DNA of 64,000 bases from Gracilaria vermiculophylla (lineage: Eukaryota; Rhodophyta; Florideophyceae; Gracilariales; Gracilariaceae), in NCBI GenBank assembly GCA_019155205.2, contig JAHNZQ020000016.1:958008-1022007 (forward strand). The letters run 5' to 3'. Below the pieces are notes generated by a model, which saw only the letters and a list, made by a program, of their open reading frames with translations, had not been told where the DNA came from and searched no databases. Within the stretch, counting starts at the first letter, position 1; each line of letters begins with the position of its first letter. This document shows positions 5,090-50,271 of this stretch, one piece after another. Position numbers and translations under genes: made by a program.

Positions 5090-5644
5090 AGTAGTACAGT
5101 GGCTTCTAAGAAAATATGGTGGTGTGGCTTTATGGTGTGATATCCCTAAAGAGGGCTCTCATTTTATTTACTGAGCCTCGTTGTGCAAAATTATGCTCGC
5201 GTGCGCTACAGTATCTTTAAGAACCGGTAGAATTTATATTTCTTTTAGTTATTTTATGCAGGTAATTAGTACAGTTGTGAGACCTGCCGAGGCGGGCTCC
5301 CGGCTTGGTACTCAATCTGCCGATTGAGCTCCACCTCTGGGGAAGTAAAGACAAGTACCCTTTAGTCTTCATCTACTTTTCCGGTTGGAGACTCTCGTCG
5401 ATCATCCTCAGATTTCTAAGCCGCCGATCCCCAGGTCGTGTCAAAGCAGGGCCTGTAGGAACAATGTCCGCCCAGTGAACCTCCCCCTCCGCTTGGTGTT
5501 TGCGAATCCCCTTTTGTGAATTCCCCCGGCTCGCCACAGCGAATACCGGAGACCACCTTTCGGAATACGCAATTTTGGAGTCAACAAAAACTCCTAACGG
5601 ACGTTGTGCTCTATTACCTGGAAAGGTGACTTGACAATACCACA
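5090..5644 (+). repeat. 5' LTR of E1
   Basis: About 555 bp, matching 14594-15146 throughout and the E2 LTRs inverted. The family consensus start TGTAGTACAGTGG is AGTAGTACAGTGG here (first base changed); the end is TACCACA. Confidence 0.9.
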
Positions 5645-7585: not shown

Positions 7586-7664
7586 TGTTGGAAAACAGAT
7601 GAGCTATTTGCGCTATACTCTCTTGCGACACAGGGCGCACAGTTCACCATTTGAACTATCAACA
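7586..7664 (-). repeat. LTR (5' on minus strand) of the miniature element
   Basis: 79 bp, partner of 7356-7434. Near-identity of the pair implies recent insertion. Confidence 0.9.
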
Positions 7665-10900: not shown

Positions 10901-12619
10901 TTATCCAAAACGCCAACGGGAAAGAAAGATCCGATGGAGAATGGTTGAAATGCTGTGAACCTGGAGAAAAGTATAGTGGACTCCCTAAGGTGATGGCGCT
11001 TGTCGAGGATGAGAAAGAAGTTCTCTCCATTACCGTAGTGGAGTTCCTGAAGGAACAGAGTACGGATGCGTACTGCAAGGAGTGCCTCGCCACTGTGAGG
11101 AGTATGACATCGTCATTCGACATCGACCGAGACGGCGTACTTGTACGCCGCGCCCCTCTGGATAGAGCCCTCCAAAAGGTGGTACCAACGAAGTTACGGG
11201 CGAGGGTGCTGTATCTTTCGCGCTATCCTAGCCTCGCCGGGCACCCTGATGGATCGTGAATATACTTCACCATGCGGAGGGAATTCTACTGGCCGAACAT
11301 GGCTAATGACACCTTCCAAACGGTCGCGGATTGCTACTCCTGCGCCGCCGCTGGGGAGAGTATACAGAAACACCGGACGCCACTCACTCTGTTCCCACCT
11401 TCACGACCGTTGGAGTTGGTGGCCATGGACATTTTGGGCCCTCTCCCCAAGACGGAGCGAAGGCACCGATTTATGATTTATCCTCGGGATCACGGATCGT
11501 TTCTCGACGATCACGCGTGCCATCTCCCTCCGGAGCACCACTGCAGCAGTGATCGCCAACGCCTTTCTGAAGCATTGGGTTTACCCTTACGGGATACCGT
11601 TTTACCTCCTTACGGATAATGGCCCCCAGTTTGCGGCGAAGCTCTTCCGCGCCGTCTTCGGAATGCTGGGGATGAAACAGCTGTTTACAACTGTCTATCA
11701 CCCCCATACAAACGGACAGGCGGAGAGGTTCAACAAAACCATCCCCTCGAGGCTGAAGCACTACGTCGCGGACCACCAGAAGGATTGGGACGCATATGTG
11801 GGCCCCCTCACGTATGCATACAACCTGCAGGTGCACCGCTGCACAGGGACCGCTCCTCTTCATCTTGTGCTCTCGCGCATCCCGCCAAGTGCCGTCATTG
11901 CGGCACGCGCCACTGCGCACCCGGCGGAAGGGCCACAGGCACCGATAGCGGCGCAAGCCAAACGCTCCATCCTAAGGCGGTATCAGAACGCACTCTCTTT
12001 CACAAAGGGGAGACTCAATTCCTCGCAGAGAAGATATAAACAGGACTTCGACCGAAAGGTGATGGAAGGCCCTCATCTGAAAGAAGGCGACGAGGTTTTC
12101 CTCGAAAAACCCGGGGAAACATCCGACGAACCGCCAGACGTCACTTGCAAGTTAGCGTCGATCACCTCAGAGCCCGACAAAGTCCTGGCCACCTGTAAGG
12201 ATACTGTCGCCGTTGAGGTGAATGGGCTCAGAGACGTCGTTTCGCGTGATAAGGTGACGAAAGTCCCGACGCCCAGCCGCTCAGGAATGCCCGCCACCCC
12301 ACCTCAGGGACGGCGCGCGGAACTTCCTCATCCGACCACCTCAGCTGCGACGACACCGCTGGAGACTGGGAACCGCATTACCGCTGTTGGTGGACCATTA
12401 CCGGAGGCTCCCGATGCCATCCTGATCCCTGAGGATGACATCCTCTGCGCGGTGGACCATATCGTCTCACACCGACAGACCTCTGCAGGAATACTGTACA
12501 GCCTCCGATGGTATTGGTTCACCTCGAAGGACGACACGGAAGAACCTCCGGAACATATCCCGGAGAAATTGCTTAGGCGATACCACGCCAATCTGGTGCG
12601 GAAACGCCTCTCCACATAG
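10834..12619 (+). pseudogene. Integrase with C-terminal chromodomain, E1
   Basis: Integrase joins the cDNA to the host chromosome. The zinc-binding part (HHCC) lies near 11230-11345 (MRREFYWPNMAND, then CYSC). The core has MDILGPLP near 11430 (first Asp), LLTDNGPQF near 11610 (second Asp) and GQAERFN near 11715 (Glu). The frame 11549-12619 is open for 356 codons; upstream parts are in another frame. The tail (about 12447-12600) reads as a chromodomain (LRWYWF, then EKLLRRYHANL), which places the element among chromoviruses; in that group the domain can guide integration to marked chromatin. The stop is TAG at 12617-12619. Confidence 0.87.
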
Positions 12620-12862: not shown

Positions 12863-14081
12863 CTACAGGTCAGCGAAGCGTGTTGAACACTGCGCTTCGC
12901 GGCGCGCTTTTGCCGTGAGCGCTTGGCTATCGAAGAAGTCCGACGGGCTTTCCTTGATGGCCGCCATCGAGGCTCGGTCTGCATGGGCCTTGTGGAGCTC
13001 TTAGACCCAAGCACGCCCCTTGCGCAGAGCCTCTACAGGAGAAGCCGGAGCAGGACGGCCTGTCACCAGACACGCCTGCACCAACTCCTGGAAAGCAGCC
13101 TCCACAGCCCCAGAGGAGACTCCTCCCGGCGGTGCACCCGATGCGGCCACTTCCGTTGACGGCGCAACAACCGCCACCAAAGGAGCCGCGGACAGCGGAC
13201 TAGATGGGACAGGGGCTCCCCTACGGGGTTCCACAGGTTCCGCAGTGGAGGTCGGCAAAGCCAAGGACGGAGTCGGTGACACCAGAGGTGACGGCGGTGC
13301 GGGAACTGGAACGCTCCACAGGCGAGGCTGAGGAATAGGCGCAGGGACGCCCCGTCCCCAATTGATTTTGGTTTAGCCGGTAGAGGGGATCTCATGGGGG
13401 ATCGAAGGGAAACACCACGAGAGCAGAGCGTCCATCGGCAATGCTTCCGGGTCGCCCCGCTCTTTGCTGTGAGCTCTCCTTGTGGAGCAGTACCTGAAGT
13501 CGCGCCTGAATCTCGCGTTCTTCCGCGCACTTCAAGTATGGAGTATCCCAGTATCCCACCGTGGTTAGAGCATTGTCACCGTGCACCGGAGTGTCGATCC
13601 AGTGAGTGCAATAGACATCCACCCGGTTCCGCTTCTGGTCGTTCCACGCAACCTCCAGTATGGTGCGGAATCGCATCGCCCGGAGGTATGGGCCGAAGTG
13701 GTGAATGTAATCCTCTACGGGGCACGGGAGGCTTACGCGCCTGTCGTGGAACGGGACAAAGACCCACATGGCGCGATGATTGAAATGCTCTTTTGGACGG
13801 AACGGCGCACCGGTCGAGTTGTGGTACACCTCAGGATTCGATAGAGACGTAGGCGCCGGAGTTGGAGAAGACATGCCGAAGGTGTAGGAAGCCGGATGGA
13901 TGGTGACCAAACGCGTGGTAGCACCTGAAAAGAGCGATCTGACGCCACTTGGGACGCGGCACGTGGTTATACGACCGACTGGAGAGGGAGCCTCGTCAAC
14001 CCGCTTTTGTGGAATTCGAGGAGAAGCCGGGCGACCGGAATCAGGCGAGGTATGGAGCTCCATAGCTTGGCCTAGGTTCAT
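12863..14081 (-). pseudogene. Antisense gene of the E1 family, deleted copy
   Basis: Lies between the chromodomain end of pol and the 3' LTR, on the strand opposite to gag and pol. The ATG at 14081 is conserved with E2 (MNLGQAMELHTS here, MNLHLAIELHTS there). It is open for 229 codons to a TGA at 13392-13394. It contains the conserved block FHDRRVSLPCPVEDY, followed by HHFGPYL. Relative to E2 about 0.9 kb is deleted near 13340-13390. The Pro/Ser/Ala-rich hinge then follows (13282-13001), with a tail SQALTAKARREA and a TAG at 12863-12865. Function unknown and no family recognised. Protein-level conservation against E2 argues that it was a real gene (see findings). Confidence 0.7.
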
Positions 14082-14593: not shown

Positions 14594-15146
14594 TGTATTA
14601 CAGTGGCTCCTAAGGAAATATGGTGGTTTGGCTTTATGGTATACTATTCCTAAGGAGGGCTCGTATTTTATTAGCTGGGCCACGTGGTGCATAATCTCAC
14701 CCACTTGCGCTACAGTATCCTTGAGGAACGATAGAGTTATTATTTATTTTAGTTAATTTATGAAGGAAATCAGTACAGTAGCGAGACCTGCCGAGGCGGG
14801 CTTCCGGCTTGATTCTCAATCTGCCGGTTGAGCTCTACCTCTGGGGAAGTTAAGACAAGCACCCTTGAGCCTTCGTCTACTTTTCCGGTTGGATTCTCTT
14901 GTCGATCAACGCAGGTTTCTAAGCCCCCGATCCCCAGGTCGCATCGTAGCAGCGCCTGTAGGAGCATTGTCCGCCCAGTGAACCTCCCGCTTCGCTTGGT
15001 GTTTGCGGATCCCCTTAAGGACCTCCCTTGGCTCACGACAGCGGATATCGGAGACCACTTTTAGGAACACGCGCCTTTGGAGTCAACAATAACTCCTAAC
15101 GGACGTTGTGCTTTACTATCTCGAGAAGAGGTCTGACAGTACCACA
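14594..15146 (+). repeat. 3' LTR of E1
   Basis: 553 bp, TGTATTACAGTGG...TACCACA. Clearly diverged by scattered substitutions from the 5' LTR at 5090-5644, so the insertion is old. Confidence 0.9.
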
Positions 15147-18368: not shown

Positions 18369-18382
18369 CTCACCCTCTCTTA
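18369..18382 (-). promoter_or_regulatory. Polypurine tract of the nested chromovirus
   Basis: Minus strand AAGAGAGGGTGAG, immediately before the 3' LTR start TGCAATAG. Confidence 0.7.
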
Positions 18383-19206: not shown

Positions 19207-20286
19207 CTTCGTAATTTCTTTGAATTAATGAGACTTGAAAAGCTTCTCTCTATCCAGAATGATAGTCTTAGGCACCCCATGTTTCGAAAACAATCTATCG
19301 AACAGTATTTTCACAACTTCCGTAGAGGTCAATGTCTTCTTCTTCGGAATAAAAATAGCTCTCTTCGAAAGTTTCTCTACGACAACAAGTACTGAATTTG
19401 TCCCTGTGGGATTTATCGGAAATTCTTACACAAAATCCATTGAGACGACATCTCAACCTGCTTCCGGTACGCGATGCGGCTGTAGCTTCCCACTCTACAT
19501 CGCCGTTGCCTCTCTGTTGAACTGACACTCTCGACAAGTTCTTACAAATTCTTGGATATCTGCGAACATTCGCTTCCAGTAGAAGTGTTGAGCACAGAGC
19601 AAATATGTCTTCTCCCATCCGAAATGCCCTGGTAGATGGAACTCTTTCGCTATTGCCTCGTGAAGACCTCTACTTCGTGGAACACCTACACGCCCCGACG
19701 TACCTCTGGCCTTCCAGTAAATTAGACCTTCCTGAAAAGAATAATTTTTGATGTACATCGCTGTTTTCTTGTTGGGTGGTTCCCTACCACCTCGAAGAAC
19801 AATCAGGATGTTCTGCGTCCATGAGTCGTTCTCGTAACCCTCTCGAATCGCCAAATGTAATTGTTTCTCGTGTAAACAAAGGGCCTTAAATGTCGGGTGA
19901 CATTCATACAGTCTACTCAAGGCATCTGCCGCTCCATTCCTTGAGCCTTTGAGGTGCTCCACTCGGAATGAGTAACACTGTAATTCGTCCAGCAATCTCC
20001 TTTGTCTTCCTGAGAGCTTCGATTTCGTCTGTAAGTACTTGATAGGCTCGTGATCTGTGCGTATCATGAATGGGCGATCTTTTAGATACCCTGACCATTT
20101 GCGTAACGCGATCATAATTGCCAACAATTCCTGATCTCCTGTATCCCACCTTGTCTCAGCCTCCGATAGGCGATGAGATAGGAATGCAACTGGTTGACCC
20201 TTCTGTTCCAAGGTTGCGTCTACAGCGTACTTTGACGCATCGGTGGTCAAAACGAAAACTCCTTCCGAGGTTGGATGACGTAGCAC
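19207..20286 (-). pseudogene. RNase H and integrase N-terminal part (nested chromovirus)
   Basis: Open from 20286 to 19495. RNase H motifs: LTTDASKYAVDATL, GDQELLAIMIAL, MIRTDHEPIKYL and GAADALSR. Then the integrase zinc-binding domain (HLPGHFGWEKTY, CRECQFNRE). The integrase core between 19495 and 19207 is readable only in pieces because of frameshifts. Confidence 0.87.
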
Positions 20287-20582
20287 AAGTGCTGTTGTTA
20301 GCTGTCACTTCAACTCTTCAAACGCACGCTTCTGTTTGTCTCCCCATTCAAAGATCTTCGTGCGGAGTAAGTCGGTGATTTGTTGCGCAACTCGCGCGAA
20401 ACCTTTCATAAACTTTCTGTAGAAGTTTGCAAGACCTACGAACTTTTGTACTTCCTTCACTGATGGCGTTGTAGGCTACTTTTCTACAGCTTGCACAAGC
20501 CTCTGCTGCGTGTGAACTCCTTTGGAGTTGATGTTGAAGCCCAGGTAGTCAACCTCTGTCGCACCAAAATCACTCATGCTAG

Positions 20583-20640
20583 TGTCTATTGACCAGGCCG
20601 TTCGCCTCATATGAGGCAGTCGTTTGCCTCATATGAGGCA
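20583..20640 (+). repeat. Left terminal inverted repeat with doubled palindrome
   Basis: Begins TGTCTATTGACC and contains GCCTCATATGAGGC at 20604-20617 and the full 16-bp palindrome TGCCTCATATGAGGCA at 20625-20640. Partner of 23451-23508. Confidence 0.85.
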
Positions 20641-20814
20641 GACTCGATTGAGGAGTTGTGATTAAAAAAACATTAAATTTTTCGTTTTGGCCCGGCGCGT
20701 TACCCGCATGACGCATACATTGCTGGCATATTTGTGCTCCCTACTCTATTCTATGTCTTCCATCCCATCAACTCTACTTTACATAGGTCAGATTCACTCT
20801 TCAGCACCAGCACG

Positions 20815-20886
20815 GGAGTGGTAGCCTAGTTGGTAGGCTGCCACTTTGCGAAGCTGAGGTTGCGAGTTCGACGCGCTGAGTTTCTA
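20815..20886 (+). ncRNA. tRNA-like Pol III promoter module (SINE head or tRNA relic)
   Basis: TAGCCTAGTTG at 20822 fits the A box (TRGYNNARNNG) and GTTCGACGC at 20866 fits the B box (GWTCRANNC). Their 44-base spacing is that of a tRNA. The D stem AGCC/GGCT pairs. The anticodon, T and acceptor stems do not pair properly, so it is not a working tRNA gene. It sits in the non-coding arm of the piggyBac-like element, downstream of and opposite to the transposase. Confidence 0.5.
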
Positions 20887-21193
20887 TCAGAAACTCGAAA
20901 ATTCCTTCGGGAACTCGACCAATTCTTAATAATGCGACTGTCTGCAGTAAGTCTTAGGACGCCCACTTGAACATGAGAAAGCATACGGTGACATCTCATA
21001 AAGGGGAATTACGTCAAGACTAGTAGTTGCCGAGCAAATTTAATGATGGAGGCGAATTGGTAGGGGGCTATGTCAAGAACTGCAAAAGAAAAGAAAGAAG
21101 ACTTTGTTTGGTCTTTTGATATTTATTTAATCAGCCTGACAACATTTGTCAGTCACGGTCAACGGACCATAGCAAGTAGTAATGAACTAACAT

Positions 21194-23284
21194 TCAGGCA
21201 TTACCGATATCATGAAAATCTTGGATGTGAATGATAAAGCAATGGCGACCAGTGTCAGAGTGGCACAGAAATATGTTGTAATTTCGCTCATTTCTACAAC
21301 CAGAGCAAACAAACTTTGACTTCTTCGTTGTTTTGCAAACACGACAATGACCTTGATAGACTGCTTTTGACAAAGATCCTTCGGAACGCTTTCGCTTGCG
21401 GTTTGTCGGCGTCAGGTGTAGACCAACCCCACTGACACCCTCCTGCACACGCTCGTCACGAGAAGCGTTGACATCCGCCCCACGTATACCCGTACCATTA
21501 TAAGTGTTGTCAATCAGACCTTCTGCAAGTTTTTCATAAAAAACGGCTTGAGACATCGTCGTACGCGGACCCATGGAGTGCTTGTAAACAAGCCAAGCGT
21601 CCACAATGCAAACAGACAGAAGAGTGGTATTGACTCTAAGTGACCAGGACCTGACTTCAAATGCTTTCTCCAAATCGAGAGAATCTTGTCTGTTTCCGTT
21701 GTGTCGGTCAATCTGTCCACATGTCTTGTAGTAGTCTTCTGCAACTTGCGGAATGTCAACATGGTACTCTACCTTTTTGGTTTCGTCGCCCTCTTTTCGC
21801 CACCTTGATCTTTCAATGACCTCTCCAGGAGAGGTTACCGAGCACGAGCTGATAAAGTAGCGTCTCTGTCTATCCAGCCAGAGTACTGCCATGAGATGAA
21901 TAGAATCACCCGGTAGCTTGCTTACCCTACTCAAGTGCTCTCCACGAGCAGACAGCTCTTTTTCTGACAGTAGCTTCATCGGATACTGACGAGTTGCTCC
22001 ATTGACGACACCTATGAATCGCATTCTGTAGCGCATGAGTGCCTGCGCTGTTGACACGGATGCAAAACACGAGTCACCGCACACAACTCTGTCAGACCTG
22101 AGCCACGGTTTGACTAAGCGCAGGGTTGCTGCAGCAGAGAGGCTACATTCATCTTCAAATGCACGAAAATCTGAACTTGTTGACCCGCTGACAATCTCGA
22201 GTCGTAGCATCATACCGCTCTTTCCGCATGCCGCAGTTCTGATCTCACACCCACTCTCCGGTTTCCTATCGAGAGCAACATAATGCGGAAGCCCTATGTC
22301 GATCCAGTTCCCTCCTAACCCGTACCATCTCGACATGCTTTCGTCAACGCAGATGTTGTCAGATGGGGTAACGTATCTTGCACGATGCGCATTGATAGCG
22401 TCAACAAACTCACTTACAACTGACCAGCGCGACTGAGACTCGAGAACGCCAGATATTTCGGCCAATGAACTAAAGCAAATATTGCTCAGAATGGTATCAA
22501 ATCGAGCGCGCGACATGAACCGGCCAAAATTTGCCACAGGTCCATATTTTGTCAGCGGCTCTGTTCTCCATAGGTCTCTTCTGTTTCCGACCTTGTACTT
22601 TGTCATCATGATTAGAACGCCAAAAAACTTGAGTATCTCTCCGGCTGTAACTGGACGATAAACAGTCTCATCAACTTTGTGGTTGGTAAGTCTGACAATT
22701 GTACTCAGATGCATCAAAGGAAACGTGTACATGAAAAAGTAATACGGCGAGAAGTCACGCGGTGCATTACCATATGTAAGCACATCTCCGACCTGACCAA
22801 TGACTTTCCACGTCTTGGATGGAACCGGGCCATTGAGAGGGTATGATACCTCTTCAAACTTCCATGTGCGGCCATGCTCCACGTAATCTCCGTCAATCTC
22901 GACAGACTCGTGCTCCGTAGGCATGACCGCAGCTAAAGCATTCTCGTTCTCTTCTTGCCCTTCTCGAGTAATCTGGGCATCCTGAGATGCGCTCGCTGGA
23001 TCGGGCGGTGCTTCCATGGCTGAGAAGGAACTGTCGCGCTTGATGTTGACAAGTTTCAACGTCACGCGCTTAGTTCGAGACTGAATGAGCCAATCGATAG
23101 TGACAGATTTCTGACGGCGGCCGTTATTTTCGGCTACAATGATGTCGATAACCGTCCCAGAAAGCATCTTTGACTTCCAGACGGACCCGAAGAGGCGCTT
23201 ACACTCCCCCACTGACGTGACAAGGGAGGCACGACAGTAGACGGTATTACCTGCGATGAGGCGAGGGTCGGATCGGTTGGGCAT
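21194..23284 (-). CDS. piggyBac-family (DDE_Tnp_1_7) transposase
   Basis: 696 residues from ATG at 23284 (MPNRSDPR); the longer frame to 23326 begins with TTG. Cut-and-paste transposase acting in the nucleus. Residues 140-600 show the family fold. Catalytic positions are seen as ICVDESMSRWYG (Asp about 314), VVCGDSCFAS (Asp about 404) and CGQIDRHNG (Asp about 526, in place of the usual GVDxxDQ box). Residues about 643-692 form a Cys/His-rich domain (CRVC, CSGC, then further Cys and His), like the DNA-binding tail of piggyBac enzymes. The N-terminal 130 residues are variable, with an acidic stretch. No stop or frameshift, so it may be active or recently so. Family call is firm; subgroup unknown. 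Confidence 0.87.
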   Translation of the reverse strand: MPNRSDPRLIAGNTVYCRASLVTSVGECKRLFGSVWKSKMLSGTVIDIIVAENNGRRQKSVTIDWLIQSRTKRVTLKLVNIKRDSSFSAMEAPPDPASASQDAQITREGQEENENALAAVMPTEHESVEIDGDYVEHGRTWKFEEVSYPLNGPVPSKTWKVIGQVGDVLTYGNAPRDFSPYYFFMYTFPLMHLSTIVRLTNHKVDETVYRPVTAGEILKFFGVLIMMTKYKVGNRRDLWRTEPLTKYGPVANFGRFMSRARFDTILSNICFSSLAEISGVLESQSRWSVVSEFVDAINAHRARYVTPSDNICVDESMSRWYGLGGNWIDIGLPHYVALDRKPESGCEIRTAACGKSGMMLRLEIVSGSTSSDFRAFEDECSLSAAATLRLVKPWLRSDRVVCGDSCFASVSTAQALMRYRMRFIGVVNGATRQYPMKLLSEKELSARGEHLSRVSKLPGDSIHLMAVLWLDRQRRYFISSCSVTSPGEVIERSRWRKEGDETKKVEYHVDIPQVAEDYYKTCGQIDRHNGNRQDSLDLEKAFEVRSWSLRVNTTLLSVCIVDAWLVYKHSMGPRTTMSQAVFYEKLAEGLIDNTYNGTGIRGADVNASRDERVQEGVSGVGLHLTPTNRKRKRSEGSLSKAVYQGHCRVCKTTKKSKFVCSGCRNERNYNIFLCHSDTGRHCFIIHIQDFHDIGNA

Positions 23285-23450
23285 TTTTCGGATTTTGAGC
23301 TGAAGAAGGAGGACGAGAATTCGCAAGGTGCGTGGTAGGGTCTTTATTCTTTGTTACTTTAGCTTTGCTACCCTTCTACGTTCGTAAGACTATCATCTTG
23401 TAAGAGTTGAAGGATAGGAGCAAAAAAAAAGTACTGAAAAATTTCGGGGA

Positions 23451-23508
23451 AAGTTCCGCCTCATATGAGGCAGATCTGCCTCATATGAGGCGGACGGTAC
23501 AACAGACA
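23451..23508 (-). repeat. Right terminal inverted repeat with doubled palindrome
   Basis: Inverted partner of 20583-20640. On the minus strand it begins TGTCTGTTGTACC and carries two copies of the GCCTCATATGAGGC palindrome (23477-23491 and 23458-23471). Confidence 0.85.
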
Positions 23509-23512
23509 CTAG

Positions 23513-24213
23513 GTCTGAGGTACAGCTTATGCTTTCTCAAAATATGCAACAGCTTTCGCAAATGCCGTCTGTGGTCTTCTACGCTCTTACTGTAGATGAG
23601 AATGTCATCTAAGTAAAGAAGCATACATTCTGCATGTAACTCACGAAGAACATGTGCCAATAGAGGCGAGAAGGCTGCTGATGTGTTTGTTAAACCAAAA
23701 CATAGCACTCTCCACTCGAAGGATCCATATCGTGTGCGTATATCCGTCTTGTGACAGTCCTCTTCTTTGAGCCTCATCTGATGGTATCCTCAGATTAAAT
23801 CAATCTGCGAGAAAATCTTAGCTTCTGCTACCTGATCAATGGTCTCATTGATCAGCGGAATAGGACTTGCATCTGGAATATTGATCTTATTCAATGCTCT
23901 GTAGTCACAAACCATTCTGAGATCCCCGTTCTTCTTTTTGATGACAAATACTGGAGCTCCGTATAGTGAGTAAGACGGTCTTAGAAGTCCTTTTTCTTGA
24001 TTATTTTTGCAACTGGCGCTTCAGTTCAGGTAGTTCACGAGATGAAAGTCTAATGACAGATCGGACAGGAGGTTGGGCACCCGGAATAAGGATAATTTCA
24101 AATTCCATCCGACGTGGCGGGGGCGGCTCATCCGGTAACTCTTCCTTAAGTACATCTTCGAACTCTGCTAGAACGTCTCGAAACTCAGGAGCGCACTTTG
24201 CCTCTGACGCCAC
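23513..24213 (-). pseudogene. Reverse transcriptase of the nested chromovirus, split by the piggyBac-like element
   Basis: Minus-strand pieces: FEDVLKEELPDEPPPPR (N-terminal RT leader, 24213-24001), then VFVIKKKNGDLRMVCDYRAL near 23940, the YGSFEWRVLCFGLTN motif near 23720, and LLYLDDILIYSKS (YLDD box) near 23620. The frame is interrupted by stops near 24001 and 23790 and then by the transposon at 23508; the next RT residues resume at 20578 (DFGATEVDYLGF). It is non-functional. Confidence 0.88.
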
Positions 24214-24377
24214 CGACTCTTTGTTCTAAGATACTCGAACCGCAAACAGTTTCCAGTTTCCCTTCTTGACTTCTTTACACATCCTCTTCAACGATATCTG
24301 TTTAAAACAGATCTCTTGCGATGTGTTGGTCTTGTTGCTGCGAGGTGTTATCGTTACCACAGTACCATTGCTGCGTT

Positions 24378-24734
24378 TCACCTTGAGAACTTCGTTTGCC
24401 AATCAATATGTGGGTTATGGACTCGCAACCAAGGTCTCCCCAGTATTAGAACTGGAATAACACTGTCTTCTTTCATACTGATGACTAAAATTGGCTCTTC
24501 ACTCATGAACCCATTGATGTTCAAAACTGCACGTGTCTCACCCAGTACGCTTGTCTTTGATGAGTCTCCAAGTTCGACTTCTTTTCCTGTGTCGTCTTTC
24601 AATTCCAAATTCAATCTCTTCGCGTCTTCTACTGACATGAAGTTGTGCGACGCGTACGAATCTACGATTGTCTTCACTGGATGCCCTGCGAGCATTGCAT
24701 CATACATCCAGTTGTCTTCTTCTGCATACTTCAA
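24378..24734 (-). pseudogene. Retropepsin of the nested chromovirus, altered active site
   Basis: 118-codon open piece with the motif TIVDSYASHNFMS where a working protease has Asp-Ser/Thr-Gly; here Gly is Tyr. The later hydrophobic VLILGRPWL motif (flap and second-helix region) is intact. The start codon shown by the open frame is not meaningful, since the domain is part of a polyprotein. Confidence 0.78.
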
Positions 24735-25005
24735 TGTAGAAAGATATGGCGACTCCTCTTGTGAGTCGCCTCTTCTCGCCGCCTCAAAGTGCGGCCCTAC
24801 TGGTTTTTTGAGTGATCAGAGCTCTTGTCCTCAGCCCGGTCTTGTCTGCAAGAGTGGCTGGGATCGCTCCATCCTTTCTTTCCGCACTTGAAGCATCTGT
24901 CATTTCTCCTGTAGAGAGCAATCTCTCCGCGTTTCATCGTTCCCAAAGATACCGCGTTGATGTCTTTCGTAGTGCGGACACCTTCCTTCGAGGTTTCTGC
25001 ACCCC

Positions 25006-25809
25006 CTAAGTATTTTCCAGGCTTGTTATTATTCTTCCTCGAGCTCTGCTCCTTTTGAGAGCTGCACCGTGACTCGCCTGCAAGCTTAAATCACAGCTCG
25101 AGAGGTCTAGCATAGTCATATGCCGGCTACGTAGAAACATTTCCAGTGCGATTGATCGGCTCAGAAGTCGGAAACTTCTCTGTAAGCTTACCCTCGTATG
25201 TTTTCGGAAGACTATTGAAGAAATATATGTATGCTTTATTTTTTTTGTGCCACACAACGTTATGAGATCTTCAAATCGTGCAATGTGATCATTCATAGAC
25301 CCATTCTCTTTCAAACGGAACTCCATGAGTTTCACTCATACCGTGGCTATCTTATTCGCTGGAACAAATTCCTCGATCATGGCTTTCTCGAGCTCCTCAA
25401 GACTGGAAGGTTTACGAGCCTCCTTTTCTAGACGCAAATTCCAAGACGCCGCTCTATCCTGAAAATGACGTTCAGCGAGGTCGAGCATTTTCTTCTCTGA
25501 ATAATTGAATAATTTTCCATTCTTCCTGATGGAGTAAAAGAAACTAGTGACCTTTTCCGTGGTCCTTTCCGACGCCTTTCCTGAAAATGCCTGCACTGGG
25601 GGAGCTTTGGGCGACCCACCGGAGGACTCAGAAGTTTTCCTCTGGTTGTTCTGCTGCAACTGCGACTGCAAAGTCTCAATCGTTGAGCTTTGAGTCTGCT
25701 CCAATTGCTTTAACGCTTGAAGCTCTTCGCTGAGCTGCTGTAGGTGTGGTGCCTCATTCACACCCTCTTCTTCTTGCGGTACACTTTGGCTTCGGCTTGT
25801 ACAAACCAT
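25006..25809 (-). pseudogene. gag of the nested chromovirus
   Basis: Starts at ATG 25809 (MVCTSRSQS). The N-terminal 60 residues form a Gln-rich coiled coil, followed by a retrotransposon-gag domain (LDLAERHFQDRAASWNL). An in-frame TGA at 25336-25338 divides it, and the same frame continues to 25006 (RLKENGSMNDHIARFEDLI). Further downstream in another frame (near 24890) a Cys-x2-Cys...His-x-Cys cluster resembles a zinc knuckle. Broken by the stop and frameshifts. Confidence 0.82.
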
Positions 25810-25860
25810 GATTCATCAAGCGCTTTTCGTTCCAGTAAACGTACCTTAGATGCTATCAAA

Positions 25861-26060
25861 TGTAAAGGTAGGCTCTTACCAAAACAAAACTGACTTTACA
25901 AACTGGAGGCCCCCTCCTCCTTGTAGTTCGAACCTTCTAAACGTTCGCATCTTATACTACAGTAGACGTCTGGTCTTGAATGTTTGAATCTGAATTCAAA
26001 CATTTAAGACGGTTCGCATAAATGCAATGTGAAAGTTCGTACTACGACCATTCTATTGCA
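25861..26060 (-). repeat. 5' LTR of the nested chromovirus
   Basis: 200 bp, pairs with 18169-18368. The bases after it on the minus strand read TTTGATAGCATCTAAGG, with no TGG adjacent to the LTR, so a standard tRNA 3'-end primer site is not obvious. Confidence 0.92.
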
Positions 26061-29740: not shown

Positions 29741-30352
29741 CTAATACGGATACAATCCTTTCGGCTCATCGCAGAATCGAGTTCCTTGGCGAGAGACAGA
29801 GAACACGCTTCCGCACACATCCTCACAACAACGTTTCTGACCGCCCCTGAGCACGGCGTCGTTGAAAGTGAAGTATCGCGGTGGTCCGCCTCCAGGTAGA
29901 GAGAAAGCGGCATCGCAAGCCTCTTGGATCATTGCATCATTCTCGAAGCATAGCTCCAGGCACCCTCCAATGGTCGGTGTTTGCGGGCGGATGCGCAGTG
30001 CATGGCTGGGGACTCCTGGGCAGAGGCACATGACATTAAGAACGGTAGTCGGGATGCCAGGAACGAGCACCTTACACTTCTTCTCGGGCGCCGGGGCAGC
30101 AGATCTGCTGGGACTCGCCGACGGAGAGCTGGAAGGCGACGCCGACACAGAGGGTGTCGGAGAGACGGAAGGAGAGGCAGACGGTGACGCAGAAGGAGAG
30201 CTGCTGGGTGTGGCCGTGGCAGTTGGTCGCGGATGCATTTCGTGGTTGTAGTAAGGACTGTTATAATACTCGTCCCAGCGTGAAGCTTCTGCAGTGTGCA
30301 GAAGCACGGCGGAGAAAAATAGTGCCAGAAGAAGAAGCGCACGTGAAATCAT
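29741..30352 (-). CDS. Secreted Ser/Pro-rich protein with ten-Cys C-terminal domain (paralog 1)
   Basis: 203 residues from ATG at 30352. A signal peptide (MISRALLLLALFFSAVLLH, cleavage likely after TAEA) is followed by a short aromatic/His segment. A low-complexity stalk follows, built of Pro-Ser-Ala-Ser (about residues 42-88), then a Cys-rich domain (about 94-195) with ten cysteines. Blocks shared with paralog 2 (32608-33792) are GIPTTVL, CLCPG, TIGGCL, LPGGGP and CCE. The stalk resembles O-glycosylated linkers of wall or mucilage proteins, so an extracellular role is likely. I do not recognise the Cys domain. A TATA-like element lies about 100 bp upstream. No intron needed. Confidence 0.82.
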   Translation of the reverse strand: MISRALLLLALFFSAVLLHTAEASRWDEYYNSPYYNHEMHPRPTATATPSSSPSASPSASPSVSPTPSVSASPSSSPSASPSRSAAPAPEKKCKVLVPGIPTTVLNVMCLCPGVPSHALRIRPQTPTIGGCLELCFENDAMIQEACDAAFSLPGGGPPRYFTFNDAVLRGGQKRCCEDVCGSVFSVSRQGTRFCDEPKGLYPY

Positions 30353-32607: not shown

Positions 32608-33792
32608 TCAAGAGCAAATACCACGAATAGAGTCATAGCTGCTGTCGCAACTTATCTCACAGCACCACTCCATTCCTCCATTAACAACTTCATCGTTGAA
32701 CGCGAAGTAGCGAACTGGACCGCCGCCAGGCAAATCAAACGCACTATTACACGCCTCTTCAATTGCAGCATCATTTAACAGGCAATCCCTCAAACAGGCT
32801 CCAATCGTAAATGAACCTGGTCGAACACTAAGAGCGTTGCTCGGCGATCCAGGGCATAAACATTGCAAAAATAGTACCGTGGTAGGCACTCCTGCAATAA
32901 CCACTTCACAACCTTCACCGCTTGGGGAAGGCGATGGCGAGGAGCTCAGGCTCGGAGACGCGCTTGACGATGGCGAGGCACTCACAGACATAGACGGTGT
33001 CGAGGAAGCTGATGGGCTCATAGTCATTGATACACTGGCCGACGCCGACATACTTGCGCTTGCAGATGCACTCGCTGATGCCGACGGCGATGCAGATGGC
33101 GTCGGAGGCATGGATGCGCTCGGAGACGCCGACATACTCATGGATGATGATGCACTCATTGAAGCGGACGGCGTCATGGATGTGCTCGGAGACGCCGACA
33201 TACTGATGGATGGTGATGCACTCATTGAAGCGGACGGCGTCATGGATTGAGTTGCAGATATGGATGCACTTGCGGAAGCCGACATACTGACAGATGGGGA
33301 TGTACTCATTGAAGCGGATGCAGTCGTGGATGGAGTCACGGAAGTGGACGCACTCGCCGATGCAGACATGGAAGCCGAAGGAGAGGCGCCATCTGATGGA
33401 GACGAGGTAATTGACGGAGTAACGGATATGAATACACTCGTCCATGGAGATACGCTCGTCGACATTGAAGCGGACACAGAGGGTGTCGGTGTGATGGTAG
33501 CCGATGCTGAAGCAGACGAGCTAGGGGCTGCTGACATCGACATTGAGATTGACGGCATCGGTGTTGTTGGCCATGCAGATTTGGATATCGAAGGGCTTGG
33601 TGAATGTTCCGCTGTGGGACTCGGGCTCATGCTCAGGCTTGGAGTCGGAGTAGCAGTTGGGAAGAACCATGGAAAGTATTTTGCGTATGGGTGTTCTTTC
33701 TTTCTCATCAAATTGACATGTTCAGTGGCATCCACATTCGATGAGAAGACCAATGCAATCAGCAGACATATGATCAATGAACTTTTCTTCAT
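32608..33792 (-). CDS. Secreted Ser/Ala/Met/Pro-rich protein with ten-Cys C-terminal domain (paralog 2)
   Basis: 394 residues from ATG at 33792. Signal peptide [22 protein letters not shown], then a short leader and a stalk of about 220 residues built from short repeats such as SMSASPS and SASASAS. A ten-Cys domain (about residues 292-394) lines up with paralog 1 cysteine by cysteine (GVPTTVL, CLCPG, TIGACL, LPGGGP, CCE). The stalk is much longer than in paralog 1, which suggests repeat expansion. Probably an extracellular, heavily glycosylated protein. The long open frames on the plus strand here are shadows of the repetitive stalk. TATA-like element about 100 bp upstream. Confidence 0.82.
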
Positions 33793-39705: not shown

Positions 39706-40259
39706 TGTGGTACCGTCAGTTCTCCTTTCATGGTAGGAGTGCACAACGTCCGTTAGTAGTTTTTTATGACTACAAAGGCGCTAGTTCCTAAAGGTAGTCT
39801 CCGGTAATCGCTGTTGCAAGGCGAGGGGATTCTGAAAGGGGATCCGCAAACAACAAGCGGAGGGGGAGCTTCACCGGGCGGACAATGTTCCTACAGGCGC
39901 TGTTACGGGGCGCCCTGGGTATCGGAGGCTTAGAAACCCTTACGATGTACGACGAGAGTCTCCACCATGAAAAATAGATGTACACTCAAGGGTGCTTGGT
40001 TTACTTCCCCGAAGGTTGAGCTCGACCGGCAAATCAAGTATCACTCCGGGAGCCCGCCTCGACAGGTCTCACTACTGTAGTAATTACCTGCACATATTAA
40101 CTAGAATGAATCTTAATTCTACCGTTCCTCAGGGATACTGTCGCGCACGTGGGCCAAATTGGGCACCACGTGGCTCAGATAATAAAATAGGGGCCTTAGT
40201 TAGGTATGCCCCGTCGGAAAACCACACCACTATATCACCTTGGGATATACTACACTACA
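39706..40259 (-). repeat. 3' LTR of E2
   Basis: 554 bp. On the minus strand it starts TGTAGTGTAGTATATCCC and ends GGTACCACA. Confidence 0.9.
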
Positions 40260-40273
40260 TTCACCCTTTTTTG
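40260..40273 (-). promoter_or_regulatory. Polypurine tract of E2
   Basis: Minus strand AAAAAAGGGTGAA right before the LTR start TGTAGTG. Confidence 0.65.
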
Positions 40274-40654
40274 AATTGCACCACGTCCCCGAGGTACATC
40301 TTTCCATAGCTCGGCCTGTAATTGGCTCCCATCGGTGCTGGGGTCAGAGCGGTCTTCCACGATGTGACAAATCCTCTACTTCAGGCGTTCCTACATACTC
40401 CCCTATTACCACGCGGTGTACCAACCGCGGGCTCGTGCCTCTCGGTTAAGGCGGGTCCGGGCCCTCACGCTTCTCGACTTATCCTCATCACTCCTTCTTG
40501 GTGCAAAGTGGTGGTGCTGAAACGCTCGGCATCTCGATTCTCTCGAGGATCCCTTTTTGGAAACGCCAACGCTGTCGCGTCCGCTCGTCCATCCTCAATG
40601 GAGATAACACCCTCATATTTTCCGCGTCTGCCCTTTCATCGTCCCCCGTCTGCT

Positions 40655-42836
40655 ATGAACTTGCACCTTGCCATAGAGCTCCATACCTCGCCGTCATCCT
40701 GTCGTCCGTCCCATCCGCGCATTCTACGATGGGGTCTCGACGCGGCTCCCTCCCCGGTCGGGCATATAACCGCGGGCCGCTCCCCAGGTGGTGTCTGGTC
40801 ATCCTCCTCAGGTGCTACGCCACATTCGTTCTCACTCCTTCCAGCTGCATACACCTTCGGAATGACTTTTTCAGCCTAGGCACCTACGTCTCCGTCCAAT
40901 CCTGCGGTGTATCACACCTCTACCGGTGCTCCTTCTCGCCCAGGGGAGCACTTCGACCATCGTGGCACGCGAGTCTTTGTGCCTTCCTACGATAGGCGCG
41001 TCAGTCTCCCGTGCCCTGTGGAGGACTACAATCATCATTTCGGACCATACTTGCAAGCGATGAGATTCCACGCCGTACCAGAGGTTGCATCGGACGACCA
41101 GAGGCGGAATCGGGTGGACGCATTTCGCGCTCACTAGCTCCACACTCTGGTGCACGGTGACAACGCTCCAACCACGGTGGGGCACTGCGACACTCCTTAT
41201 TTCAGGGGAGACGAAGAATGGGAAATCCAGGCTCGACTCCGATTCCCCCTCTACAATGAAAGTTCACACCAGGAAGTGGGGCGGCACAGAAGCATCGCCG
41301 ATGGATGCTCTGCCGTTGCGATGCTTCCCTTCGATCCCCCTTACTATCGCCTCTACTGGCTCAAGCAAGACCGATGGGTGAGGCACCTTGCGGATGAGAG
41401 CCGAATGTGGACCGCCTTTGGATACTTCTACGGTTGGCACAACACGGAGTTCCAGGACATGCCTTCCGGGCAAAGTCCAAAGTATTACCTCATGTTGAAT
41501 GACTCCTGGAGGGACCATTGGGTATCTCCGCACCTCTGTGTGGCAACGCCCATTACCTTCGCGTATCACGCCTCGTAGGTGTTGCGTCCCCACGACTTCC
41601 TGGGGCGTTTTGTCATGTTGATTGCCTCGACGGAGCTTGCGGTCGGCATTCTAATGGCGTATCTTCAAGCAGATGACGAAAGAGTCACTTCCTAAACGCG
41701 GTACCGCGACGGTCGCCTCCATTGGGATTCTTCGTACCAACCAACAGCCGGATGTTTACTCCCCTTGTCGGCGTCTGTTATCCGGGTCCTGCGCTCCTTC
41801 GGAATTCAGAAGCTGATCAAGGGCACCACGTGGAGCAAATCCGAGGCGTAGACGCTGCTGGATTACAAACTGCAGGTGGATTGGAACGATAAGCCGGGCT
41901 TCCTTTGGTATGATCATGGCGAAGACAAGTTCCACCCTATTGTGAGGAGTCCCATTGCAGACGATGACAGGCGAACGTACCCGTCCTTTACACGTCTTGC
42001 CTCTTTCCGGGCTACTCAGGTGCCACTGCTCCGTGTCGTCGACTATGATCCCACGATGGAGAGCCTAGCGACTCGCACGCCCCATCCGTTACCGGCTCCG
42101 TCACAGAATGTGGCTGAGTCTTCTGAGGTCGGGACGCAGCGTTCAGCCTCAATGCTGGATCCTCCCGCAGTGGTGGCCGCCGTGTCTTCTATGGAAGAGG
42201 ACTAGATTACTCTTGTCCGGGTTGCTTCGGCCCCGGTGGTGCAACCCCGACTGTGGAGTGTCCCGGTGCCTGTTGTTCAGCGTCGCCTGAGGAGTGTTCC
42301 AGTTCCCATACCGCCGTCACCTCCGGTGTCGCCTACTCCTTTCATAGCCCTGCCGACCTCCTCCACGGATCCTTCAGAATCCCTTCGGGAGGCGCCTGTC
42401 GCAGGCGGTTCGCCGTCAGCGACTCCTTCCGTGGCGGTTGCTGTTCCGTCGACGGAGATTGCTGCTTCTGGTGCTCCCCCGGGAAGGTTATCTTCCGGAG
42501 CTCTGGGTGGTGCCTTCCAGGAGTAGGTACAGGCGTGCCTGGTGAGGGTCCATCCTGCTCCGGCTTTTTCTGTAGACGCTCTGTGCCAGGCTTGTACCTG
42601 GGTCCTAGAACTCCATAGGGCCCGGGCGGACCGAGTCTCGATGGTGGCCATCTAGGAAATCCTAGCAAAGTTCATCGAGAGCCAAGCGCTCTCAGCGAAA
42701 GCTCGCCTCGAAGCTGAGTATACGACACGATTTGGTGAACTGTTTGTCAAAGAAACGCCGGCGATATGGGCTAGTCTCCTGTAGCGACGGAAAAAAAGAT
42801 CCTTGAGTTGGAGCAGAAGCTCCGTAAACGGTAGTT
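40655..42836 (+). pseudogene. Antisense gene of the E1/E2 family, near full length with in-frame stops
   Basis: On the strand opposite to gag and pol. The ATG at 40655 (MNLHLAIELHTS) is conserved with E1. A single frame runs to 42784 without a frameshift. It is interrupted by nine stops: TAG at 40877, 41135, 41576, 41849, 42203, 42524, 42653 and 42782, and TAA at 41693. A 1-bp shift in an A run then leads to a coiled-coil end (ILELEQKLRKR, stop at about 42836). Order: N-terminal 70 residues; conserved block with YDRRVSLPCPVEDY and HHFGPYL; middle with WYDHGEDKFHPIVRSP; Pro/Ser/Ala hinge; charged helical tail (SQALSAKARLEAEYTTRF). The protein would be about 720 residues. No known family recognised. 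Some plant Ty3/gypsy elements such as Grande also carry an antisense gene in this place, but I see no similarity to judge homology. Confidence 0.75.
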
Positions 42837-43015
42837 GCAGTACAGTTGAGGCATTCCCACACGCTCGGTGACACGAAGTGCTGACACGGGAGCGTGCGAA
42901 AAGCGGGCAATGGCGTCCTGGAGGTGAAAAAGAGAACTCTAGGCGGGGGAGAGATAGCGGAGACGGAAAACAACTCCGGTCGGGGGCCCCCTCCCCCTTT
43001 CCTAAGCAAAAGTGC

Positions 43016-44036
43016 CTATGCGGATAGGCGTTTCGGCACCAAATTGGCGTGGTATCTGCTGACGAAATTCTCCGGGATGTGTCCCGCAGATTCTTCCGTA
43101 TCGTTATTTGAGGTGTAGCCAAACCGGCGGACGCGGTACGATATCTATGCGGGGGGTTTTTCGTGGGAAACGATATCGTCTACCGTGTAGAGGATATCAC
43201 CTTGAGGGTTTGTGATGGCGTCTGGAGCTTCCATCAATGGTTTGCCGAGAAGGGTGATGCGGTTTCCAATATCCAACGGTGTCGTCACTTCGGAGGTGGT
43301 CAGATGAGGTAGTTTTACGCGTGGTCCCTGAAGTGGCGCGGAGGGCATTCCTGAAGGGCTGGGGGTCGTAACTTTTGTCACAATATCACGAGAGGTGACG
43401 TCTTGGAGCCCGTTTACCTCCCTGGCGACAGTGTCTCTATAGGTGTCCAGGACATTATGAGGCCCTGAGGTGTTTGGCACTAACTTGCGCGTGATGTCCG
43501 ATGGTTCATCGGCTGTCTCCCCAGGTTTTTCGAAGAAAACATCGTCGTCTTCCTTCAGATGAGGCCCTTCCTTCACCTTCCGGTCAAAATCCTGTTTATA
43601 ACTTCTCGGCGAGGCGTTGAGTCTCTTCTTTGCGAGAGAGAGTGCGTCCTGATATCGCTTTAGGATGAAGTGTTTTGCTTGCGCCGCTGTTGATACCTAT
43701 GGCCCATCCCCCGGGCGCGGCGTGACGCGTGCGGCAACGATGGCAATGAGCGGAATGCGCGAGAGCACCAGATTGAAAGGAGAAGTCGCCGTGAAGCGGT
43801 GGACCTGCAGGTTGTATGCGTACATGAGCGGACCCACATATGCATCCCGACCCTTTTTGGTGGTCCGCGATGTAGTGCCTCAGCCGTGAGGCGATGGCCT
43901 TGTTTAGCCTCTCCACTTGTCCGCTTGTCTGAGGGTGATAGGCAGTCGTAAACAACTGCTTCATCCCCAGCGTTCCGGAGATGGCGCTGAATACCTTTGC
44001 CGCGAGCTGGGGCCCGTTATCCGTAAGGAGGTACAA
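43016..44036 (-). pseudogene. Integrase core to chromodomain of E2
   Basis: 44036-43596 begins YLLTDNGPQLAAKVF (second catalytic Asp) and has GQVERLNKAI (Glu helix). 43576-43145 continues in another frame with KEGPHLKEDDDVFFEKPGE. The chromodomain end is readable to a TAG at 43016-43018 (VSRYHANLVPKRLST), parallel to E1. At least two frameshifts. Confidence 0.85.
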
Positions 44037-44164: not shown

Positions 44165-44989
44165 TCATCGCTTCTTCTTGAGGAGGGGGCCCAAAACGTC
44201 CATGGCGACGAACTCCAAGGGTCCTGAAGGCGGGAAAAGAGTGAGCGGCGTCCCGTTTCGACGGATATTTCCCATAGCGGCGGCCCACGAGTGGCATTCC
44301 GCCACCGTTTGGATGGCCTCATTAGTCATGTTCGGCCAATGGAACTCCCTCCCTATGATAAAATACATGCGCGATCCACCGAGGCGCCCGGCGAGGCGAG
44401 TATAGTGCGATAGATTCAGCACCCTTGCCTGTAGTCTTCTCGCGACCACCTTTTGAAGAGCTCGATCCAGGAGAACGCGGCGTACAAGTACGCCTTCCCG
44501 GTCGAAATCGAATGACGATGTCAGAATACCCATAATGGCGAGGTACTCCCTGCAGTACGCATCCGTACTCTGCTCTTTCAGGATCTCCAATATGGTGATG
44601 GGGAGAACCTCTTTTTCTTCCTCAACAAGGGCCAACACCTCAGGGAGCACAATGTACTTTCCTCCAGGTTCACAGCATTCCAAGCATTCTCCATCGGATC
44701 CTTCTTTCCCGTCGGCGTCCTGGATGACCAAACACGGAATTGTGTCCTCCAAGGATGTTACGTCTTCTCCTGCGGTAGAGATTCGCAAAAGCACGTGCGC
44801 TGCCTGGTGTTTTATGTCAGGACGGTGAAAGATGTCAAATTCAAACTCCAGAAGGCGTCGCCTCCACCTTTCCAAGCGGTCGGAAGCTTCCGTCAAAGAC
44901 AGTATCCACTTTAATGGTGCGTGGTCCGTCCTCAAGGTGAAACGCGCGCCTTCCAGGTATGGGCGTAAAAGCAACACCGCCCATATCAT
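44165..44989 (-). pseudogene. RNase H end and integrase zinc domain of E2
   Basis: One frame of 274 codons: FTLRTDHAPLKWILSLTEA (RNase H), then a linker with AAHVLLRIS (normally ADALSR), then the zinc-binding domain (GREFHWPNMTNEAIQT, then CHSW where E1 has CYSC) and MDVLGPLLKKKR, the first catalytic Asp of the integrase core. Loss of one zinc-ligand Cys (CHSW) would disable it. Confidence 0.85.
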
Positions 44990-49272: not shown

Positions 49273-49826
49273 TGTGGTACCGTCAATTCTCCTTCTGAGA
49301 GGGTAGCACACAACGTCCGTTAGGAGATTTTCACAACTCCGAAGGCGCGAGTTCGTAAAGGCGGTCTCGGATAATCGCTGTCACGAGCCGGGGGAATCCT
49401 GAAAGGGGATCCGCAAACACCAACCGGAGAGGGAGGTTCACTGGAAGGACAATGTTCCTACAGGCGCTGGTTCGGGGCGACCTGGGGATCGGCGGCTTAG
49501 AAACCTTCAGGATGTTCGACCAGAGTCTCCAACCGGAAAAATAGATGTAAACTCAAGGGTGCTTGGTCTACTTCCCCAGAGGTTAGGCTCGACCGGCAGG
49601 TTACGTATCATGCCGGGAGCCCGCCTCGGCAGGTCTCACTAATATATTAATTACCTGCACCGATTGACTAAAATAAATCTAAATTCTATTGGTCCTCAAT
49701 GGTAACGTAGCGCACGTAGGCTGAATAATGCACCACGTGGCTAAGTTGATAAAATACGAACCCTCCTTAGGAATATCTCCTAGTAATGCCACATGATAAT
49801 ATCACCTTAATATCCACTGTACTACA
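49273..49826 (-). repeat. 5' LTR of E2
   Basis: 554 bp. On the minus strand it starts TGTAGTACAGTGG, the family consensus, and ends GGTACCACA. Confidence 0.9.
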
Positions 49827-49837
49827 CTCCTTTCGAA

Positions 49838-50271
49838 GTGGTAGAGCTCAACGTCTACTAGAGGTTTTTTGCGACTTTAAAGGCGCGAGTTTCTAAAGGT
49901 AGTCTCCGGTAATCACGGTCACAAGCCGAAAAAATCCTGAAAGGGGGTCCACAAGCTTCAAACGTAGAAGGGGGTTCACGGGGCGAACAATGCTCCTACA
50001 GGCGCTGCTATAAAGCGACCTGGGGATTGGCGGCTTAGAAGCCTGAAGTTGTTTGACAAGAGTCTCCAACCGGAAAAAGTAGAAAAAGACTCAAGAGTGC
50101 TTAGTTTCTTTCCCCCAGAGGTGGAGCTCGACCGGCAGATTAAGTACTGTGCCGGGAGCCCGCCTCGACAGGTCTCACTACTGTAATAATTACCTTCACC
50201 AAGTATCGAAAATAAATCTATATTCTACAATTCCTCAAAGACCATATCACCTCAATATCCACTGTACTACA
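49838..50271 (-). repeat. Truncated LTR of the E1/E2 family
   Basis: About 434 bp in the same orientation as the E2 LTRs and only about 11 bp beyond E2. It lacks the terminal 50 bases at one side and has an internal deletion of roughly 80 bases. It ends ACTGTACTACA like the E2 LTR. A solo or truncated LTR of an older insertion. Confidence 0.8.

What the first reader, a model, noticed from the sequence alone, without database searches (positions are those of the whole stretch)
40655..42836. A long, conserved antisense gene inside a Ty3/gypsy chromovirus
Between the chromodomain and the 3' LTR of E2, a single plus-strand frame runs about 710 codons without any frameshift. The sense-strand pol of the same copy changes frame repeatedly (frames of successive pieces are 0, 2, 2, 1, 1, 2, 1). 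E1 carries the same gene in the same place, with the same ATG and the same motif order. Its architecture (conserved globular block, Pro/Ser/Ala hinge, coiled-coil tail) is that of a real protein. Antisense genes are known in some plant Ty3/gypsy elements (for example Grande); a red-algal-type lineage with one would be new to me. It could be a regulator, a structural accessory, or a captured host gene.
Basis: partly seen in the sequence, partly recalled or inferred. Interest (0 to 1): 0.88.

Follow-up and report, generated by a model that had tools for sequence, protein, structure and literature searches.

The report
Antisense gene in red-algal retrotransposon
A jumping element that is abundant in a red alga's genome carries, backwards behind its normal genes, an extra protein gene that evolution kept working although the protein resembles no known family.

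Summary
The antisense gene is real, but the E2 copy is dead: 8 in-frame stops lie inside its 696 codons, and E1 lacks codons 244-533. The family settles it. In 30 copies the antisense frame has one stop column shared by at least 15 copies, its own terminator (24 of 30); the other five frames have 9-17 such columns. Median dN/dS is 0.357 (0.99-1.29 in four other frames, 0.437 in the wobble-on-wobble frame), close to the element's pol (0.321). Variants in one copy ignore codon position (34% third positions); variants in five or more do not (74%; pol 70%). So the gene was selected while the element replicated and decays after insertion. It lies opposite and downstream of pol in 69 of 74 close pairs. 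Host: a red alga. Closest kind: antisense ORFs between pol and 3' LTR (Grande, RIRE2, Retand; brtn of fungal Boty). No domain was recognised; one metagenomic relative was found. Best reading: an accessory protein acting in trans, made from an antisense transcript. Transcription and biochemical role are inferred.

The parts
40655..42745 (+). Antisense accessory gene (aORF) of element E2, decayed copy: about 696 codons, 8 in-frame stops inside; E2 has a sense codon at the family terminator column
40832..41914 (+). aORF conserved globular block (about residues 60-420), dN/dS 0.15-0.25
41915..42454 (+). Pro/Ser/Ala-rich hinge (about residues 421-600), faster evolving; P+S+A 46-48% over residues 441-600 in 5 copies
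42494..42739 (+). Helical, coiled-coil-like C-terminal tail (about residues 614-695); residues 641-690 at pLDDT 68-73
   Evidence: single-sequence fold; mean pLDDT 34.2
43014..43198 (-). E2 chromodomain and end of pol (pol stop at about 43016), tail to tail with the aORF
   Evidence: Pfam Chromo E 0.039 in E2, 4.3e-4 in E1 (both below cut-off), above cut-off in 4 of 4 other copies tested
44165..44989 (-). E2 pol: RNase H / integrase zinc-binding part used as the selection yardstick
39706..40262 (-). E2 3' LTR (antisense ATG lies about 390 bp inside it in E2)
   Evidence: 79% identical to 49273-49829
49273..49829 (-). E2 5' LTR
13353..14081 (-). E1 aORF, first part (residues 1-243)
12866..13354 (-). 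E1 aORF, last part (residues 534-696); about 290 codons lost between the two parts
12302..12619 (+). E1 chromodomain and end of pol
5091..5644 (+). E1 5' LTR
14595..15146 (+). E1 3' LTR (83% identical to the 5' LTR)

Best explanation
A high-copy, chromodomain-bearing Ty3/Gypsy retrotransposon family of a red alga carries a third gene, placed tail to tail with gag-pol and read from the 3' LTR side on the opposite strand. It encodes a protein of about 696 residues: a globular block, a Pro/Ser/Ala hinge and a helical tail. SHOWN: it is an integral part of the family with fixed position and orientation; it was a translated frame under purifying selection, about as strong as on pol, while the family replicated; single copies decay neutrally after insertion. 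INFERRED: it is transcribed from its own antisense promoter in the 3' LTR or between LTR and ATG (about 390 bp in E2). INFERRED: its product acts in trans as an accessory protein of the replication cycle, most likely oligomerising through the helical tail and using the globular block on nucleic acid or a partner (integration complex, element RNA or element transcription), as proposed for Grande GENE23 and Retand TRP28 proteins.
For: Antisense frame: 1 stop column shared by >=15 of 30 copies (the terminator, 24 of 30) against 16, 17, 9, 17 and 11 in the other frames. Median dN/dS 0.357 over 435 pairs, falling with divergence from 0.46 to 0.28; pol 0.321. Third-position share: singletons 513 of 1520, variants in >=5 copies 174 of 235; in the block 118 of 138; pol 202 of 521 and 39 of 56. 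Start ATG in 28 of 30 copies; in-frame stop 13 codons before it in 27 of 30. Position: 69 of 74 close pairs opposite and downstream, median gap 3421 bp; chromodomain on the opposite strand in 28 of 30 loci. A relative outside this assembly, P0001, 48% identical over 151 residues. Role by analogy: PMC7264820, parts 1-2 of 3 read; PMC11963269, passages.
Against: No RNA data: antisense transcription is not shown. No homolog with known function. No usable fold of the block. The LTR-to-ATG stretch is no better conserved than the LTR (mean column identity 0.83-0.91 in both), and I saw no clear promoter. The 30 copies were the best protein matches to E2 of 61 scored, which favours preserved frames (the pol set was chosen the same way). 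5 of 74 close pairs have another geometry, and 77 of 150 listed aORF places have no partner among the 150 listed pol places (both lists capped). The reverse frame whose third positions coincide with the aORF's also has low dN/dS (0.437); its 17 shared stop columns exclude it. The 12 closest pairs of copies have dN/dS 0.31-0.73, as expected from decay but weaker evidence of constraint than the median.
Confidence: 0.68

Rival explanations
1. Captured host gene: the element transduced a cellular gene in antisense orientation and kept it, and the protein still does a host-like job.
For: Block-hinge-tail architecture looks like an ordinary cellular protein; the gene is in a fixed place in the family.
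Against: No homolog reported from Pfam, NCBIfam, PHROGs, PDB, GTDB contigs or viral contigs, and only one relative among the scored candidates of 5.8 billion proteins. A diverged host copy in this genome could not be excluded, because own-genome lists show only the best matches.
Confidence: 0.12
2. The antisense transcript itself is the functional unit (double-stranded RNA that limits transposition), and the frame is secondary.
For: PMC7264820 discusses antisense transcripts of LTR elements as sources of small RNAs.
Against: An RNA role does not predict codon-position bias of shared variants (174 of 235 at third positions), dN/dS 0.36 in this frame or a kept terminator. It may exist on top of the protein.
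Confidence: 0.05
3. A structural or envelope-like accessory of the virus-like particle rather than a nuclear or regulatory protein.
For: Location after pol is where env-like ORFs sit (PMC7264820); a hydrophobic stretch at about residues 314-337 is the maximum (mean hydropathy 1.6-2.0) in 3 of 5 copies computed.
Against: It is on the wrong strand for an env-like gene made by splicing of the sense RNA; residues 1-60 are basic and Pro/Ser/Ala-rich with no obvious signal peptide (judged by eye); the stretch lies inside the conserved block and may be a core helix.
Confidence: 0.13
4. Chance open frame or compositional artefact.
For: GC of 55-57% in this part of E2 makes stops rarer.
Against: Same DNA, other five frames: 9-17 shared stop columns each, and dN/dS about 1 or above in four of them.
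Confidence: 0.01

Closest known systems
aORF-3R of Grande (gene23), RIRE2 and Retand, plant Ty3/Gypsy; Retand is non-chromovirus (PMC7264820 parts 1-2 of 3 read; PMC11963269 passages)
   [quoted passage not shown] function unknown
   Different: Host is a red alga and the element carries a chromodomain; no TRP28 (PF04195) or other Pfam domain found; a nuclear location and own promoter, reported for Grande, are untested here
brtn of Boty-like elements (Botrytis cinerea); known to me from the reference title and passages in PMC8365987 and from PMC7264820; the original paper was not read
   Same: Additional antisense gene of an LTR element outside plants
PvRetro13 ORF2 (common bean), with an SMC domain (PMC7264820)
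   Same: Antisense, between pol and 3' LTR; a coiled-coil-like part (SMC being coiled-coil is recalled)
   Different: The red-algal protein shows only a short helical tail and no Pfam match
Antisense genes of HTLV-type retroviruses (named in PMC7264820 and PMC11963269 passages)
   Same: Antisense gene; HTLV's antisense promoter lies in the 3' LTR
   Different: Only an analogy of layout; no relatedness tested

Membership tests
Ty3/Gypsy LTR retrotransposon with chromodomain | Paired LTRs | tested here: met
   E2 79%, E1 83% LTR identity
Ty3/Gypsy LTR retrotransposon with chromodomain | RT - RNase H - integrase order in pol | tested here: met
   RVT_1, RT_RNaseH and Integrase_H2C2 above cut-off in E2; rve weak (E 0.0028, below its cut-off)
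Ty3/Gypsy LTR retrotransposon with chromodomain | C-terminal chromodomain | tested here: met
   4 of 4 other copies tested above Pfam cut-off; E1 and E2 below it
Chromovirus clade | Placement with chromoviruses in an RT tree | not tested
   No reference RT set in hand; PMC12477816 passages show that chromodomains also occur in other Gypsy lineages
Antisense aORF-3R elements (Grande/RIRE2/Retand/Boty type, by layout) | ORF antisense to gag-pol between pol and 3' LTR | tested here: met
Antisense aORF-3R elements (Grande/RIRE2/Retand/Boty type, by layout) | Kept in many copies with conservation like other element proteins | tested here: met
   (pol only; gag not compared)
Antisense aORF-3R elements (Grande/RIRE2/Retand/Boty type, by layout) | Antisense transcript from its own promoter | not testable with these tools
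   needs stranded RNA
Retand-type TRP28 protein | Pfam PF04195 domain | tested here: not met
   PF04195 not reported for any of 17 copies at E <= 1; own-genome PF04195 search found 2 weak places below cut-off, neither among the aORF places listed (those lists are capped)
Captured host gene | Cellular homolog outside elements | tested here: inconclusive
   none found, but own-genome lists are capped and only the best candidates are scored

The most novel reading that the evidence does not exclude
An antisense accessory gene arose independently in a chromodomain-bearing Ty3/Gypsy lineage of red algae, encoding a protein family (and possibly a fold) unknown elsewhere that the element needs to replicate. 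This would make antisense third genes a convergent solution of Ty3/Gypsy elements in plants, fungi and red algae.
Probability: 0.4. Interest if true: 0.72.

Novelty: new variant of a known kind. Interest (0 to 1): 0.56.

Why it matters
Antisense third genes of retrotransposons are known in plants and in fungal Boty elements, and the papers seen here call their function unknown. Here many old, diverged copies in one genome give clean evolutionary evidence, independent of expression data, that such a frame was translated and selected, in a eukaryote lineage for which my paper searches listed no antisense gene (listings from an open-licence library only). It offers a protein family outside the plant TRP28 group for asking what antisense genes do for Ty3/Gypsy elements, and a simple test (codon position of singleton against shared variants) usable on any repeat family.

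Tried and rejected
Searches with the E2 protein alone and with profiles or sets of copies gave nothing usable; XdhC_CoxI in 2 of 17 members (best E 0.046) and phrog_21727 in 1 of 17 (E 0.21) are taken as chance. Transposase_28 was tested because of the layout and not found. Single-sequence AlphaFold has mean pLDDT 34.2, so no fold search was run. The low dN/dS of one reverse frame (0.437) was considered as a sense gene and rejected: its third positions coincide with those of the aORF, the same happens in pol (0.371), and it has 17 shared stop columns. A coding exon between LTR and ATG: not supported over the whole stretch (shared variants by phase 34, 25, 25; dN/dS 0.68-0.88 in six frames, LTR 0.73-0.90), but not excluded either: the stretch is poor in shared stops on the aORF strand and its first 160 columns give 0.55 and 0.44 in one frame of each strand. 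A promoter was sought by eye in the upstream alignment: nothing convincing. gag dN/dS could not be computed: places were listed, letters were not given. Naming the algal species failed.

Full report
1. What is in the window. E2 lies on the minus strand (LTRs 39706-40262 and 49273-49829, 79% identical), E1 on the plus strand (LTRs 5091-5644 and 14595-15146, 83%). E2's pol side gives RVT_1, RT_RNaseH and Integrase_H2C2 in one frame and a weak rve match (E 0.0028, below its cut-off) in another. The pol C-terminus carries a chromodomain: E1 E 4.3e-4 and E2 0.039, both below Pfam's cut-off, but 4 of 4 further copies tested (of 28 in which it was found) are above it (E 1.3e-6 to 2.9e-8). Opposite to pol, from ATG 40655, one frame shows protein-like sequence for about 696 codons. 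In E2 it holds 8 stops before the family terminator column at 42743-42745 and one after it. E1 has residues 1-243 and 534-696 only. The two genes end tail to tail, about 270 bp apart in E2 (pol stop about 43016).

2. Copies in the genome. The assembly has 44.84 Mb in 27 contigs. A whole-protein search scored 61 places, each at E below 1e-260, out of 1101 first-look candidates; a 100-residue piece filled a list of 150, and so did a pol piece. Counts are lower bounds. Of 74 pol/aORF pairs closer than 8 kb, 69 have the aORF on the opposite strand and downstream of pol, with a median gap of 3421 bp (5-95% range 2568-4044); the 5 others have mixed geometry. 73 of 150 pol and 73 of 150 aORF places found a partner within these capped lists. 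In 30 fetched loci the chromodomain was found in 28, always on the opposite strand (not found in L006, which has 1467 masked bases, and L028). The upstream sequence of 29 of 30 loci (L006 dropped for masking) aligns from the ATG to the outer LTR edge.

3. Is the frame a gene? I aligned 30 copies by codon; these are the 30 best of 61 by similarity to E2, so preserved frames are favoured. (a) Stops: the aORF frame has 125 stops in 69 columns; one column is shared by 15 or more copies (24 copies), the next by 5. The other frames have 593, 587, 407, 639 and 430 stops with 16, 17, 9, 17 and 11 columns shared by 15 or more. (b) Ends: ATG in 28 of 30 (Ile in L007, Val in L011); an in-frame stop 13 codons before it in 27 of 30 (not in L001, L010, L011). 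(c) Rates (Nei-Gojobori, 435 pairs, codons with stops skipped): median dN/dS 0.357; other frames 1.096, 1.284, 0.989, 0.437, 1.288. The 0.437 belongs to the reverse frame whose third positions are the aORF's third positions. Pol RNase H/integrase, 30 copies chosen the same way from 141 scored: 0.321, with 0.371 in its own wobble-on-wobble reverse frame. By divergence fifths aORF dN/dS falls 0.46, 0.43, 0.37, 0.33, 0.28 and pol 0.41, 0.36, 0.33, 0.28, 0.29. (d) Frequency spectrum (columns with fewer than 20 letters left out): variants in one copy fall on codon positions 521/486/513, in two to four copies 255/214/312, in five or more 37/24/174; pol 184/135/202, 71/74/135 and 10/7/39. That is what a gene kept by selection in the replicating lineage and released after insertion should show, and it matches pol. 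An RNA-only or chance explanation does not predict it.

4. The protein. Segment dN/dS: residues 60-420 0.15-0.25; 420-660 0.52-0.63; 660-720 0.31; N-terminal 60 residues 0.59. Residues 441-600 are 46-48% Pro+Ser+Ala in 5 copies; the first 60 residues are basic (net +4 to +8). The single-sequence fold of E2 is unusable except for helices at 614-632, 640-656 and 663-695, where residues 641-690 reach block means of 68-73 pLDDT. No family match: Pfam, 17 copies, NCBIfam, PHROGs, PDB profiles (22, 70), viral contigs (10, 23), GTDB contigs (24). The full-length profile found nothing among 7990 scored candidates of 5.8 billion proteins; the block profile found one among 7993, P0001 (241 residues, E 1.5e-21), 48% identical to copy L010 over 151 residues. 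In the own genome P0001's best match is 49% identical, and the highest identity among 150 listed is 65% over 71 residues. So a diverged relative exists in another dataset; its host is unknown to me.

5. Upstream stretch. Between LTR and ATG there is no overall coding signal, but the stretch has few shared stops on the aORF strand (1-2 columns per frame in 480 columns, against 5-11 per frame in 550 LTR columns), and its first 160 columns give dN/dS ratios of 0.55 and 0.44 in one frame of each strand. A short exon or small ORF there is possible and unproven.

6. Host. Phycobilisome proteins (17 matches: 10 on C17, 6 on C20, 1 on C14) and an LHC-type family (10 matches) are present. The allophycocyanin beta chain is nearest to PDB entries 5tjf, 5y6p and 6kgx, which I recall as red-algal. 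The species was not identified. PMC3350952 (passages) reports no retrotransposon chromodomain in three red algae then available; the abstract of PMC3605345 (search listing) says that chromoviruses do have representatives in red algae, so a chromodomain element there is not itself new.

7. Comparison. [quoted passage not shown] TRP28 is in 97% of Retand clusters, with predicted DNA binding (PMC11963269, passages). Boty's gene is called brtn (title in the reference list of PMC8365987). By layout and conservation the red-algal gene works like these. By sequence it is not recognised as a TRP28 protein; relatedness to brtn, gene23 or PvRetro13 ORF2 could not be tested. My searches for an antisense gene in a chromovirus or red-algal element (listings) showed none, in a library that lacks most subscription papers.

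8. Mechanism. Shown: coding, selected, integral. Inferred: antisense promoter, action in trans, tail-mediated assembly, block binding nucleic acid or a partner. I give 0.68 to this package as a whole and above 0.95 to the shown part.

Noticed in passing
window about 40250-40420 (just inside E2's 3' LTR) and the same place in 29 copies: The first 160 alignment columns between LTR and antisense ATG show dN/dS ratios of 0.55 (aORF strand) and 0.44 (sense strand) in one frame each, against 0.73-0.90 in the LTR, and few shared stops: perhaps a short exon or small ORF.
   Followed up: partly
window 49827-50238: A third LTR copy (77% identical to both E2 LTRs over about 412 bp) sits directly behind E2's 5' LTR, so E2 has LTRs in tandem on that side.
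   Followed up: partly
window 18166-26060: Perhaps another Ty3/Gypsy-like element: direct repeats of 203 bp, 93% identical, with an RNase H stretch 40% identical to that of the E family at 20088-19909. It seems to leave no room for an antisense gene.
   Followed up: no
window 7356-7434 and 7586-7664: A 79-bp direct repeat, 98.7% identical, inside E1, far more alike than E1's own LTRs.
   Followed up: no
window 29741-30352 and 32608-33792: Two minus-strand single ORFs with a secretion-like start, long Ser/Pro/Ala repeats and a similar Cys-containing C-terminus (judged by eye): possibly a family of wall or surface proteins.
   Followed up: no
G000:C17:3006506-3176520 and G000:C20: Phycobilisome genes occur on C20 and also, spread over about 170 kb, on the 5.16-Mb contig C17: a plastid insertion, a second plastid sequence or a misassembly.
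   Followed up: partly
G000:C1:68549-68845 and G000:C1:74791-75087: Two aORF places with identical scores 6.2 kb apart (again), which suggests a recent duplication of an element piece.
   Followed up: no
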